Assembly (NCBI RefSeq): GCF_002104995.1
Contig: NW_024468263.1
Coordinates: 372,001-436,000 of the forward strand
Direction of reading: 5' to 3'
DNA: 64,000 nucleotides
Source of the DNA: Linderina pennispora
Taxonomy: Eukaryota; Kickxellomycota; Kickxellomycetes; Kickxellales; Kickxellaceae
A program made the position numbers and the translations under genes. The notes below the pieces were generated by a model. That model was not told the DNA's origin and made no database searches. It saw nothing but the letters and a program-made list of their open reading frames with translations. Positions 30,458 through 32,937 of the stretch are shown one piece after another. The stretch's first letter is position 1, and each line of letters starts with the position of its first letter.

Positions 30458-31174
30458 CTACTTCTTGAGGTGGATGTACTTGAAAGAGCTCTTGGGAACA
30501 GTCCGCGTGCCGTACTGGTGGCGCTTGTAGTTGTACTCCTCAATCGTGACGCTGTTGCCCGAGACCTTGGCCACCCACACCACATGTCCGAACTTGCTGC
30601 CGCTGTCCGTCTGGCCCACAGCTCCCGGCTTCGGCGTGTTGTCCACAGTGACGCCGGAGGCACGCGCCGCGTCGTCCCACTGGTTGGCGTTACCCCATGC
30701 CTTGCCCTTGTAGCGGTTGTGGAAGTTGATGCCCAGGCGCGAGTTGACGCGCCAGGCGACGAAGCTGACGCACTGGCACGAGTAGTACCGCCACTTGTCG
30801 ACGATGTCGCACCTTCCCTTGTACGGGTAGTCGTCCTTCATCGGACCCGCGCCGCCAGTGCTCGGCTTGTCGTCGGGCTTTGGCTTGCTGGGCGCAGGGC
30901 ACTTCTTGGCCACATAGCCGTTGCCTGTGTCGACGTAGTAGTCGCTCACGTAGCAGCCGTGCTGCGTCTTGTCCCAGAGCTCGTTGCCGTTGACCTTTGT
31001 GCCTGGCGTCTGGCACGAGAGCGTCACTTGAGCTCCTTTCTTGTATGTGCGCACGACATTGCTGGAGGTTCCCGGACCCGAACGGCAGTTGACCGTGTCG
31101 CCCTTGATGGCGTAGCCGGAGACGAGCTGCGAAGTAGTGGCGAGTAGAAGAGCGGCAATTGCGACAAATTTCAT
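30458..31174 (-). CDS. Secreted SH3b-CHAP cell-wall hydrolase (bacterial type)
   Basis: A 238-residue protein from the ATG at 31174. Signal peptide at 1-20, a bacterial-type SH3b domain at about 21-93 ('VNCRSGPGTSSNVV'), a Pro/Lys-rich linker at 94-115, and a CHAP domain at about 118-238. CHAP catalytic Cys135 lies in 'CQCVSF' and His197 in 'FGHVVWV', with Glu213/Asn215 downstream. CHAP enzymes cleave peptide or amide bonds in peptidoglycan; SH3b binds the wall. Fungi have no peptidoglycan, so an extracellular antibacterial or nutritional role is inferred. The N-terminal 93 residues differ from the divergent lysozyme gene by one residue (Lys2 to Arg). Codon use is C-rich, like the host's. A TATATAAA box lies about 80 bases upstream. 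Confidence 0.85.
   Translation of the reverse strand: MKFVAIAALLLATTSQLVSGYAIKGDTVNCRSGPGTSSNVVRTYKKGAQVTLSCQTPGTKVNGNELWDKTQHGCYVSDYYVDTGNGYVAKKCPAPSKPKPDDKPSTGGAGPMKDDYPYKGRCDIVDKWRYYSCQCVSFVAWRVNSRLGINFHNRYKGKAWGNANQWDDAARASGVTVDNTPKPGAVGQTDSGSKFGHVVWVAKVSGNSVTIEEYNYKRHQYGTRTVPKSSFKYIHLKK
30896..31174 (-). repeat. Inverted duplicate arm 1 (signal peptide + SH3b)
   Basis: 279 bases encoding residues 1-93. Only a handful of differences from 32128-32406, mostly within codons 2-4 and at synonymous sites, so the copy is recent or kept alike by conversion. Homology ends at the linker and at the start codon. Confidence 0.8.
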
Positions 31175-31252
31175 TTTTAAGAGTATAGGATGTTGTTTTC
31201 TTTGGTTGCGATATGGTTTGAATAGGGAGGGCCGAGCAAGATATCTGGTGTG

Positions 31253-31260
31253 TTTATATA
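31253..31260 (-). promoter_or_regulatory. TATA box of the SH3b-CHAP gene
   Basis: TATATAAA on the minus strand, about 80 bases upstream of the ATG at 31174. Confidence 0.5.
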
Positions 31261-32020
31261 CAAATCTCCAGCCTATACTTGAACCTATTTTTAGTGAAAT
31301 TCTTGTTTGCAGCGATAGTTTGTTTGGCAACCAAGCACACATAACGTAACTATTGTCGTCGATATGCAGCACTGCAGTTCAGTCCGTTCTGATGATTTTC
31401 ACGACCACTATCTCTTGAGCTAATAGCTAGTTTGAAGGTTCGTAAAGCTATTTGCAGATCCTGTAGTATTTTCCAGAACATCTATTTTTGGCGGACACGC
31501 AAAACACGTACCAGACTTGCTGTTTAAAACATAACATCAAGGCAAAGCTTCTCACGACATTGAAAACCTCAGCCGGCTCCAATTTTTATTTTTAGGTCGT
31601 GCAGACCAACATACCGGCGCATGATTACATGCCACTCAACATACCATCCCCACTATGTCAAAATGTAGTAGCTGAATCTATTTTTAGGTGCTATATGTCT
31701 GCATATCCATGCACGCTTACATGAGATCTTCCTAGAATTTCCAGAATATTGGTTTTGCTTGTCAGTTTATTTATAGACGCCTGCCCAAACAGATTCCTGG
31801 ATGGTGGTATGGCTTCGTAGGCCAACTATCGAAATCTTCTAGACAAATGCGTATTTTCAGCAGAACATGTGGTGCGTTGATGTCTGCGTGGTGGTAGCTA
31901 AACCCTTCAGCAAACAAACTGGACAAGATGTAAACAACATATAGCCGTGCTAAACTTAGCAGCGATACAAGTTGTACAAGTTACCGTATATGTTAAGACA
32001 ATGTCAGCTCATCGTCGATG

Positions 32021-32028
32021 TATAAAAG
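32021..32028 (+). promoter_or_regulatory. TATA box of the SH3b-lysozyme gene
   Basis: TATAAAAG, 107 bases upstream of the ATG at 32128. Confidence 0.5.
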
Positions 32029-32127
32029 ATTGTGTTTCTGTTCATTTCCATCTGTTCATTTCCATCAAAAACAGTAAATTCACTACTCTTCACACTAACA
32101 AACAACAAAAGCATAGTTTGAAAAAGA

Positions 32128-32406
32128 ATGAGGTTCGTTGCAATTGCCGCTCTTCTACTCGCCACTACTTCGCAGCTCGTCTCCGGCTACGCCATCAAGG
32201 GCGACACGGTCAACTGCCGTTCGGGTCCGGGAACCTCCAGCAATGTCGTCCGCACATACAAGAAAGGAGCTCAAGTGACGCTCTCGTGCCAGACGCCAGG
32301 CACAAAGGTCAACGGCAACGAGCTCTGGGACAAGACGCAGCACGGCTGCTACGTGAGCGACTACTACGTCGACACAGGTAACGGCTATGTGGCCAAGAAG
32401 TGCCCC
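32128..32406 (+). repeat. Inverted duplicate arm 2 (signal peptide + SH3b)
   Basis: Partner of 30896-31174, in opposite orientation, with 953 bases between the two arms. Confidence 0.8.
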
Positions 32407-32937
32407 AAGGGAACCGGTGGCAAGCCTGGCGGCTCCTCGAGCGGGTACTGCAAGAGCGTCAACGCCGCCTCGCTCAACCTGATCAAGGAGTTCGAAGGTT
32501 TCGTCAAGAGCCCGGCTCCCGATCCCATTGGTCTGCCCACTGTCGGCTACGGCCACCTGTGCCAGTCCAAGGGCTGCAAGGAGGTCAAATACAAGTTTCC
32601 GCTGAGCAAGTCCACCGCCGAGGCTCTGCTCAAGGACGATATCCCCAAGTACACGTGCCTGGGCAAGTACCTGAACGGCAAGGTCAAGCTCAACCAGAAC
32701 CAGTGGGGTGCGCTGGTGTCGTGGGTGTTCAACATGGGCTGTGGCGCGGCCCAGTCTTCGTCGCTGGTCAAGCGCCTGAATGCCGGTGAGAACCCAGGCA
32801 AGGTCATTGCTGCTGAGCTGCCCCAGTGGAAGCATGCTGGTGGCCGTGTTCTGCCTGGTCTTGAGCGTCGCCGTAAGGCTGAGGTCAAGCTTGCCCAGGC
32901 GCCTTCGAACAAGCAGGCTTTCCCCAAATGCGATTAA
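32128..32937 (+). CDS. Secreted SH3b-GH24 phage-type lysozyme
   Basis: A 269-residue protein: signal peptide (1-20), SH3b (about 21-93), Gly/Ser/Lys linker (94-107), then a T4-type (GH24) lysozyme domain (about 108-262). The catalytic triad is Glu123 in 'KEFEGF', Asp132 and Thr138 in 'PTVGYGH'. The spacing, 9 and then 6 residues, equals T4 lysozyme's Glu11-Asp20-Thr26. GH24 enzymes hydrolyse the glycan strands of peptidoglycan. With the divergent CHAP gene, the pair would cut both glycan and peptide parts of a bacterial wall. GH24 genes in fungi are generally attributed to transfer from bacteria or phages. Here signal peptide, TATA box and codon use look native, so transfer was not recent. 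Confidence 0.88.
   Translation: MRFVAIAALLLATTSQLVSGYAIKGDTVNCRSGPGTSSNVVRTYKKGAQVTLSCQTPGTKVNGNELWDKTQHGCYVSDYYVDTGNGYVAKKCPKGTGGKPGGSSSGYCKSVNAASLNLIKEFEGFVKSPAPDPIGLPTVGYGHLCQSKGCKEVKYKFPLSKSTAEALLKDDIPKYTCLGKYLNGKVKLNQNQWGALVSWVFNMGCGAAQSSSLVKRLNAGENPGKVIAAELPQWKHAGGRVLPGLERRRKAEVKLAQAPSNKQAFPKCD

What the first reader, a model, noticed from the sequence alone, without database searches (positions are those of the whole stretch)
30458..32937. Divergent SH3b-CHAP and SH3b-GH24 lysozyme pair: an antibacterial module with a copied N-terminal half
Two secreted proteins share the same signal peptide and SH3b domain (92 of 93 residues) but end in two unrelated, complementary wall-cleaving enzymes: a CHAP peptidase/amidase and a T4-type lysozyme with correct triad spacing. 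Fungi lack peptidoglycan, so the target is bacterial. The arms are also nearly identical at synonymous sites, while leader and tail regions differ. This indicates recent domain swap or gene conversion. The combination could be a fungal bactericidal system.
Basis: partly seen in the sequence, partly recalled or inferred. Interest (0 to 1): 0.9.

Follow-up and report, generated by a model that had tools for sequence, protein, structure and literature searches.

The report
Fungal bacteria-dissolving enzyme gene pair
A fungus carries back-to-back genes for two enzymes predicted to cut different bonds of bacterial walls; the part that should grip the wall has been copied from one gene to the other, similar sharing appears in some other fungi, and most genes of this family in this fungus carry the same unexpected control-site sequence.

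Summary
The window is Linderina pennispora (Kickxellales). A divergent gene pair encodes SH3b-CHAP (30458-31174, -) and SH3b-GH24 (32128-32937, +). Signal peptide plus SH3b agree in 92 of 93 residues and 272 of 279 bases. The enzymes are of known kinds; a solved fungal SH3b-GH24 (8b2s) is an active muramidase. The pair is one of ten head-to-head GH24/CHAP pairs here (about eight distinct, four intact), among about 25 GH24 and 25 CHAP places. Three things look new. (1) The SH3b arms move repeatedly between the enzymes: four interior sites agree within each haplotype and differ between haplotypes, and arm trees reject separate GH24 and CHAP arm lineages here and over 16 linked pairs of fungi; four sister pairs show no such matching. 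(2) The linkage recurs in Ascomycota. (3) Most of these genes have upstream CTAWWWWTAG, the Rlm1/MEF2 consensus: 39 of 535 genomic sites lie in 0.15% of the genome (expected 0.79), and both sites of this window lie in this intergenic region. Likeliest reading: a co-regulated, two-bond bacteriolytic module with a shared wall-targeting part. Killing, binding and regulation are untested; digesting dead bacteria is a serious rival.

The parts
30458..31174 (-). SH3b-CHAP gene, 238 aa, uninterrupted
31115..31174 (-). signal peptide of the CHAP protein, aa 1-20 (by eye)
   Evidence: solved SH3b chains match from residue 21
30899..31114 (-). SH3b domain of the CHAP protein, aa 21-92, cysteines C30 C54 C74 C92
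30530..30796 (-). CHAP catalytic domain, aa 127-215; C135 (codon first base 30772), H197 (30586), E213 (30538), N215 (30532)
30897..31178 (-). left copy of the inverted repeat (start codon to end of SH3b)
31175..32127 (.). 953-nt intergenic region between the two start codons, presumed shared promoter region
   Evidence: 774-1023 nt in the ten pairs (starts of degraded copies approximate)
31285..31294 (.). CTATTTTTAG, Rlm1/MEF2-type site 1, 111 nt before the CHAP ATG
31678..31687 (.). CTATTTTTAG, Rlm1/MEF2-type site 2
31253..31260 (-). TATA-like element before the CHAP gene (by eye)
32021..32027 (+). TATA-like element before the GH24 gene (by eye)
32124..32405 (+). right copy of the inverted repeat
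32128..32937 (+). SH3b-GH24 gene, 269 aa, uninterrupted
32128..32187 (+). signal peptide of the GH24 protein, aa 1-20 (by eye)
   Evidence: solved relatives match from residue 21-22
32188..32403 (+). SH3b domain of the GH24 protein, aa 21-92
32485..32883 (+). GH24 (phage-lysozyme) catalytic domain, aa 120-252; E123 (codon first base 32494), D132 (32521), T138 (32539)

Best explanation
The pair is a two-enzyme bacteriolytic module of Linderina pennispora. Both proteins are secreted, dock on bacterial peptidoglycan through the same SH3b wall-binding domain, and cut different bonds: GH24 the MurNAc-GlcNAc glycan backbone, CHAP an amide or peptide bond of the stem or bridge. The genes share one divergent control region with candidate sites for a MEF2/Rlm1-type MADS factor, so they are likely switched on together, possibly by the cell-wall-integrity pathway. 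The SH3b arms are passed between the two genes by recurrent gene conversion, which keeps the targeting domain matched at this locus while the catalytic domains stay different. Shown: gene layout, domains, conserved catalytic residues, arm copying at DNA level in this genome, motif enrichment. Inferred: secretion, enzyme activities (from relatives), shared wall target, Rlm1 control, antibacterial role, and selection (not mere chance) behind the copying.
For: Domains and catalytic residues. Relatives: TsGH24 is active, activity drops when the SH3-like domain is removed, and that domain binds Micrococcus cells (PMC10394673 sections 3.1-3.2). Copying: arms differ at 7 of 279 nt; at sites 40, 54, 93 and 138 both arms of the window haplotype agree and differ from both arms of haplotype C163, while the three sites of paralogue pattern (5, 6, 279) lie at the arm edges; chance overlap of at least 4 sites is 1.7e-5 over 279 sites or 0.0013 over 93 third positions. 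C163 is collinear with the window at 97-98% in the two stretches tested. Arm tree in this genome, 30 of 46 full arms: 7 label changes, 5 forced, AU p 6e-121 against one GH24-arm clade. 16 linked pairs of fungi: 12 changes, 6 forced, AU p 4.6e-6; within-pair identity reached by 0 of 20,000 re-pairings. Linkage: ten divergent pairs here, same-contig or neighbouring-tag partners in 15 other cases. Motif: 39 of 535 genomic CTAWWWWTAG sites lie in 38,849 nt upstream of 49 SH3b starts, expected 0.79, in at most 14 clusters with unlike flanks; 13 in eight distinct paired intergenics, 1,000 shuffles mean 0.21, max 3; background 2 in 159,535 nt. A MADS gene with MEF2-like sequence exists (likeness judged by eye).
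Against: No activity, binding, expression or TF-binding data for these genes. Four sister pairs (L. macrospora, three Coemansia) have unlike arms (56-59%), and re-pairing these four makes no difference (7,380 of 20,000), so matched arms are not required there. Only 4 of 16 pairs have within-pair identity above both best same-enzyme arms. In a larger tree of 210 arms only 6 of 39 label changes are forced, and labels are still clustered by enzyme. DNA-level evidence of copying exists for L. pennispora only; elsewhere only proteins were seen, so convergent change is not excluded. The L. pennispora arm tree joins two long branches, which its tool flags as unreliable. Four of eight distinct pairs look degraded, and the C163 GH24 allele stops after 108 aa (read without introns). 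One intact pair (C190:831k) and 10 of 30 solo rows have no motif, three of the ten with under 540 nt of upstream DNA. Contig-length matches, five of them on contigs over 1 Mb, show linkage at best, not adjacency.
Confidence: 0.6

Rival explanations
1. Nutritional module: the enzymes digest walls of dead bacteria, with no role in killing; the shared SH3b only raises local enzyme concentration.
For: The authors of the SH3-GH24 structure favour feeding on dead bacteria (PMC10394673 section 4). Large copy number (about 25 GH24 and 25 CHAP places) fits a saprotroph.
Against: An Rlm1-type (wall-stress) site upstream of most of these genes is not an obvious nutrient signal; of the Coprinopsis GH24 genes tabled in PMC4704728 some respond to live B. 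subtilis or E. coli and some to a nematode (passages). Neither excludes this rival.
Confidence: 0.3
2. The arm identity is neutral gene conversion helped by close inverted repeats, with no selection for matched targeting.
For: Close inverted paralogous stretches can convert each other as a matter of course (general knowledge). Sister pairs live with unlike arms. Near-identity is confined to this locus and its allele among the ten pairs.
Against: Exchange recurs in far lineages and also between genes on different contigs (L. pennispora P0006/P0131 94%, Coemansia RSA 552 P0019/P0144 96%), which proximity alone does not predict; draft contigs do not exclude proximity in the Coemansia case.
Confidence: 0.45
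3. Fresh fusion: the CHAP gene was recently built by joining a copy of the GH24 arm to a CHAP domain (single event, no ongoing exchange).
For: Near-identical arms with unlike flanks.
Against: SH3b-CHAP proteins are widespread in fungi (238 hits, best 120 listed); sister CHAP genes carry other arms; the haplotype pattern calls for copying after the haplotypes split.
Confidence: 0.06
4. Assembly artefact: arms were collapsed or copied in assembly.
For: None found; raw reads are not available here.
Against: Both haplotype contigs show the layout, with private differences in each arm; a public L. pennispora protein on a contig of C163's length carries the GH24-side arm (P0004).
Confidence: 0.02
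5. The motif is a general secreted-protein or AT-rich promoter feature, not a regulon signal.
For: The intergenics are AT-rich (GC 0.39-0.47), and the motif is over-represented genome-wide (535 against 232 for the reversed pattern). Upstream regions of unrelated secreted enzymes were not tested.
Against: Six control patterns (five composition-matched palindromes and CCW6GG) give 1 hit in the same 9,179 nt against 18; dinucleotide shuffles give 0.21 on average.
Confidence: 0.2

Closest known systems
Trichophaea saccata CWBD-GH24 muramidase (PDB 8b2s; PMC10394673)
   Same: Same architecture and order (SH3-like wall-binding domain, then GH24); match over aa 22-268 at E 3.7e-95; four cysteines in the SH3b at nearly the same spacing.
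   Different: Described as a single enzyme; no CHAP partner, pairing, arm exchange or regulation in the parts read.
Fungal SH3-like CWBD enzymes with other catalytic domains (GH184, GH73, C40, M23, amidase; PMC10394673 Fig. 5 legend)
   Same: The same SH3-like domain joined to different peptidoglycan-active domains.
   Different: The word CHAP does not occur in the main text, though an 'amidase' is listed; exchange between genes within a genome is not discussed in the parts read.
Bacterial and phage CHAP enzymes (2k3a, 2lrj, PcsB, Ly7917)
   Same: CHAP fold and Cys-His residues; PDB matches.
   Different: The fungal protein joins CHAP to the fungal-type SH3b; among the 20 of 562 phage records listed the highest identity was 41%, and the one prokaryote genome locus found was 55% (Erysipelotrichaceae MAG).
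Fungal GH24/GH25 lysozymes proposed as antibacterial (PMC4704728, PMC6272156)
   Same: GH24 genes in fungi, some induced by bacteria (passages).
   Different: No linked second enzyme in the passages seen; PMC4704728 says antibacterial activity still has to be shown.
Rlm1/MEF2 cell-wall-integrity regulon (PMC12776503, preprint, passages)
   Same: Binding consensus CTA[T/A]4TAG.
   Different: That passage speaks of cell-wall-stress genes; use for bacterial-wall enzymes was not found, but only one search carried the term Rlm1.

Membership tests
Fungal SH3-like CWBD muramidases (GH24) | N-terminal SH3-like domain with four cysteines, then GH24 | tested here: met
Fungal SH3-like CWBD muramidases (GH24) | Glu-Asp-Thr catalytic residues with T4-lysozyme spacing (T4 spacing recalled) | tested here: met
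   E123, D132, T138 invariant in 16 rows
Fungal SH3-like CWBD muramidases (GH24) | Muramidase activity and wall binding | not testable with these tools
   Known for relatives only
CHAP amidase/peptidase | CHAP domain above Pfam cut-off with Cys and His | tested here: met
   64.3 bits against 26; C135 and H197 invariant in 16 rows
CHAP amidase/peptidase | Bond cleaved (amidase or endopeptidase) | not testable with these tools
   The CHAP fold does not tell which bond
SH3_3 (Pfam PF08239) | Score above the curated cut-off | tested here: not met
   26.5 and 26.3 against 27 bits; membership of the fungal SH3-like CWBD rests on solved relatives instead
Concerted evolution by gene conversion | Paralogous stretches alike within a copy and differing between copies | tested here: met
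   L. pennispora haplotypes; trees. Not seen in four sister pairs
Rlm1 regulon | Rlm1 binds and activates the promoters | not testable with these tools
   Motif enrichment only
Phage endolysin cassette or recent bacterial transfer | Close bacterial or phage relative of the whole gene | tested here: inconclusive
   None found, but the scans are limited: genome contigs by two peptide patterns gave 1 locus, catalytic part only, 55%; viral contigs gave no close GH24 relative and one CHAP-like match over 77 residues; phages, CHAP domain only, 562 of 562 records under 60%

The most novel reading that the evidence does not exclude
Fungi run a wall-stress-triggered antibacterial arm: a MEF2/Rlm1-controlled set of paired muramidase and CHAP lysins whose wall-targeting SH3b domain is kept matched between the two enzymes by recurrent gene conversion, so that both enzymes follow the same bacterial target as it changes.
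Probability: 0.3. Interest if true: 0.82.

Novelty: new variant of a known kind. Interest (0 to 1): 0.62.

Why it matters
It would turn a set of separately annotated fungal lysozyme-like genes into one co-regulated, two-bond bacteriolytic system with a testable switch (cell-wall-integrity signalling) and a natural example of evolution re-using one targeting domain across enzymes. It makes an open question testable: whether fungal phage-type lysozymes serve attack, defence or feeding. The natural pairs are also ready-made matched enzyme combinations for lysin research on laboratory bacteria.

Tried and rejected
Bacterial or phage origin of the CHAP gene: the viral-contig scans gave no close GH24 relative and one CHAP-like match over 77 residues (L079); the phage search gave 562 of 562 records under 60% identity, 41% the highest among the 20 listed; the prokaryote scan, by two peptide patterns, gave one Erysipelotrichaceae locus. 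A donor was not settled. A follow-up search in that family failed on a handle error and was left.

Structure prediction of the CHAP protein gave only medium confidence (mean pLDDT 65.9, 16-row alignment); the fold search agrees with SH3-like plus CHAP but adds little to sequence evidence.

Single recent fusion and assembly error were considered and judged unlikely (see rivals). A larger arm tree (210 of 262 full arms, thinned at 90% identity within each enzyme) showed 39 label changes, only 6 forced by well-supported branches, and labels are still clustered (shuffled mean 68): arms are partly enzyme-specific. A regression on species divergence gave an intercept above most within-pair values (3 of 10 ascomycete pairs and 6 of 16 of all lie above it) and is not used as support; only the re-pairing result is used.

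Paper searches for a described fungal GH24-CHAP pair, for arm exchange or for Rlm1 control of lysins returned none that I recognised as such from the listings; some searches listed only part of what they found (20 of 63, 20 of 34, 20 of 80, 15 of 1,360), and the library lacks most subscription journals.
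Full report
What the window is. Five contigs of the window's genome (3,302,357; 1,001,952; 707,623; 1,346,905; 63,151 bases) have exactly the lengths of the longest contigs behind proteins named Linderina pennispora (P0122, P0132, P0240, P0025, P0004), so the host is that fungus, order Kickxellales. The genome has 26.17 Mb in 222 contigs.

The observation. Two uninterrupted ORFs lie head to head, 953 nt apart: SH3b-CHAP at 31174..30458 and SH3b-GH24 at 32128..32937. 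The 93 N-terminal residues differ once (K2R), and their DNA differs at 7 of 279 bases. The inverted repeat runs from 4 nt before each ATG to the end of the SH3b. The large ORF on the left has an Urb2/Npa2 domain and the one on the right is a catalase: ordinary fungal genes.

What the proteins are. GH24: E 6.3e-38, with E123, D132 and T138 invariant in 16 aligned rows, window included. The closest solved protein is the Trichophaea saccata SH3-GH24 muramidase 8b2s, E 3.7e-95 over aa 22-268. For that enzyme, activity falls when the SH3-like domain is removed, and the domain binds Micrococcus cells (PMC10394673, section 3 part 1 read). CHAP: 64.3 bits; C135, H197, E213 and N215 invariant in 16 rows. 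The bond it cuts cannot be told from sequence. Pfam's SH3_3 model scores just under its cut-off for both proteins.

A family, not a lone pair. In the same genome there are 26 CHAP rows, 29 GH24 rows and 51 SH3b rows; after merging rows that are pieces of one gene I count about 25 GH24 and 25 CHAP places, haplotype copies included. Ten head-to-head GH24/CHAP pairs were mapped: C57:402-405k (the window), C163, C57:133-135k, C130, C112, C168, C35, C2, C190:184-187k and C190:830-833k. C163 is the second haplotype of the window region: stretches about 20 kb to the left and 10 kb to the right of the pair match it at 98% and 97% in order. C130 is probably the second haplotype of C57:133k (arms 95-96% alike; not tested further). 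That leaves about eight distinct pairs. Both genes are intact in four (window, C57:133k, C190:184k, C190:830k); the other four have stops or lost frames when read without introns (C35 CHAP arm). The C163 GH24 allele stops after 108 aa, just behind SH3b and linker.

Exchange of the SH3b arm in this genome. Between the window and its haplotype C163, four interior arm sites (40, 54, 93, 138) have one state in both arms of one haplotype and another state in both arms of the other; the only sites with the paralogue pattern are 5, 6 and 279, at the edges. Without copying after the haplotypes split, four parallel changes would be needed; the chance of at least four shared sites is 1.7e-5 over 279 sites, or 0.0013 if only 93 third positions could change. 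On a tree of 30 arms (16 of 46 full arms were left out before the count: near-identical array or haplotype copies and the two non-enzyme arms; C163 and C130 were kept) the GH24/CHAP label changes 7 times, 5 of them forced by starred branches, and one GH24 clade is rejected (AU p 5.8e-121); the tool flags one join of two long branches in that tree. The catalytic trees place the window GH24 with C163 and then C168 (support 94) and the window CHAP with C163, C57:133k and C130 (support 91). The paired CHAP genes carry an arm of GH24 type, and the window and C163 GH24 arms nest among those CHAP arms (bootstraps 80-94, SH-aLRT 75-90). I read this as an early GH24-to-CHAP copy and a later CHAP-to-GH24 copy; the direction is only moderately supported. 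A further case links genes on different contigs: the CHAP genes of C1:2844k and kin carry an arm 91% identical at DNA level to the GH24 arm of C190:74k. Among the ten pairs, near-identical arms are seen only at the window locus and C163.

Exchange in other fungi. From the 120 listed of 610, 238 and 571 hits I picked by eye, by matching contig lengths or neighbouring locus tags, 15 further GH24/CHAP partners. Four have consecutive tags (L. macrospora, Coemansia furcata, Thermocarpiscus, Monosporascus) and Humicola is two tags apart; the other ten rest on contig length alone, five of them on contigs over 1 Mb, and in two (C. thaxteri; Coemansia RSA 1358/C. spiralis) the names shown for the two proteins are of different strains. 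The SH3b arms of the 16 pairs (window included) give a tree with 12 label changes, 6 forced, and reject one GH24 clade (AU p 4.6e-6). Sister arms within one organism: window (identical), Corynascus (97/89), Humicola (100/98), Monosporascus (98/84), Chaetomidium (89/90). Random re-pairing never reached the within-pair identity (0 of 20,000) for the ten ascomycete pairs or for all 16; for the four Kickxellales pairs other than the window it made no difference (7,380 of 20,000). Only 4 of 16 pairs exceed both best same-enzyme arms. Of 277 proteins 262 had a full arm, and 43 of these have their nearest arm in the other enzyme. I had looked at nine of these pairs and one later dropped for lying on two contigs before building the test; six more were added by contig match. 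Only proteins were available outside L. pennispora.

A shared upstream signal. The window intergenic holds CTATTTTTAG twice, the only CTAWWWWTAG sites in 64 kb. The ten paired intergenics hold 18 sites in 9,179 nt, against 1 for six control patterns together; nine of the ten have at least one, C190:830k has none. Of 30 solo SH3b rows (near copies included) 20 have a site within 1 kb; three of the ten misses had under 540 nt of upstream DNA. The rest of the fetched DNA has 2 in 159,535 nt, one in each haplotype, just behind the 3' end of an SH3b gene with a GPI-like tail. Leaving out C163 and C130, eight intergenics hold 13 sites; 1,000 dinucleotide shuffles average 0.21, maximum 3. Genome-wide there are 535 sites (reversed control 232), of which 39 lie in the 38,849 nt upstream of 49 SH3b starts, expected 0.79. 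The 39 fall into 14 clusters by ungapped flank likeness; at least one singleton (C168:1127426) is by eye a shifted member of another cluster, so 14 is an upper bound, but they are plainly not all copies of one site. CTA[T/A]4TAG is the binding consensus of yeast Rlm1, a MEF2-type MADS factor downstream of the MAP kinase Slt2 (PMC12776503, preprint, passages). The genome has MADS-box matches at five places (about three distinct genes by sequence); the one at C190:385523 reads like MEF2/Rlm1 (judged by eye). Binding and regulation are not shown.

Most likely working. Both enzymes are secreted, bind peptidoglycan through the same SH3b and cut different bonds, which should weaken a wall faster than either alone. 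A common upstream region with Rlm1-type sites suggests joint induction. Whether live competitors are killed or dead cells digested is open: PMC10394673 suggests feeding (section 4), while some Coprinopsis GH24 genes respond to live bacteria and others to a nematode (PMC4704728 passages).

Known and new. SH3b-GH24 is known; the highest GH24 abundance among the fungi compared in PMC8778642 includes L. pennispora (passages); and the SH3-like domain is known with several catalytic domains (Fig. 5 legend). I did not find in print the SH3b-CHAP partner, the divergent pairs, arm exchange, or the upstream signal (searches, listings only). I file it as a new variant of a known kind.

Noticed in passing
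G000 C190:81-88k, 168-178k, 229-237k (loci L001-L007, L009, L012, L013, L044, L046, L047, L064, L065, L067-L070): A cassette of one GH24 gene plus three or four tandem SH3b-CHAP genes is present three times, in both orientations, with many arms 99-100% identical between the copies.
   Followed up: partly
C163, C130, C194, C59, C162, C92/C38: Small contigs look like second copies of stretches elsewhere in the assembly; C163 was tested (97-98% and collinear in two stretches). The assembly is probably of a heterozygous strain.
   Followed up: partly
L042 / C163:35472 onward: The GH24 allele of the second haplotype has a stop after 108 aa, which would leave a secreted SH3b domain with linker and no enzyme.
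   Followed up: no
L076:671-1360 (-) and its second copy in L077: An SH3b domain of the same family on a Ser/Thr-rich stalk with a GPI-anchor-like tail (by eye): a possible surface-displayed bacterial-wall binder. A CTATTTTTAG site lies just behind its stop codon.
   Followed up: no
L080:82-2553: Erysipelotrichaceae MAG protein with an N-terminal CHAP domain 55% identical to the fungal one, followed by repeats; a possible pointer to a bacterial source of the fungal CHAP domain.
   Followed up: no
L079:2506-3234: IMG/VR contig with a protein that looks membrane-anchored with a coiled coil (by eye) and whose CHAP-like end is 58% identical over 77 residues to the window CHAP.
   Followed up: no
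whole genome: CTAWWWWTAG is more than twice as common as its reversed control (535 against 232), which hints at a wider MEF2/Rlm1-type regulon in this fungus.
   Followed up: no
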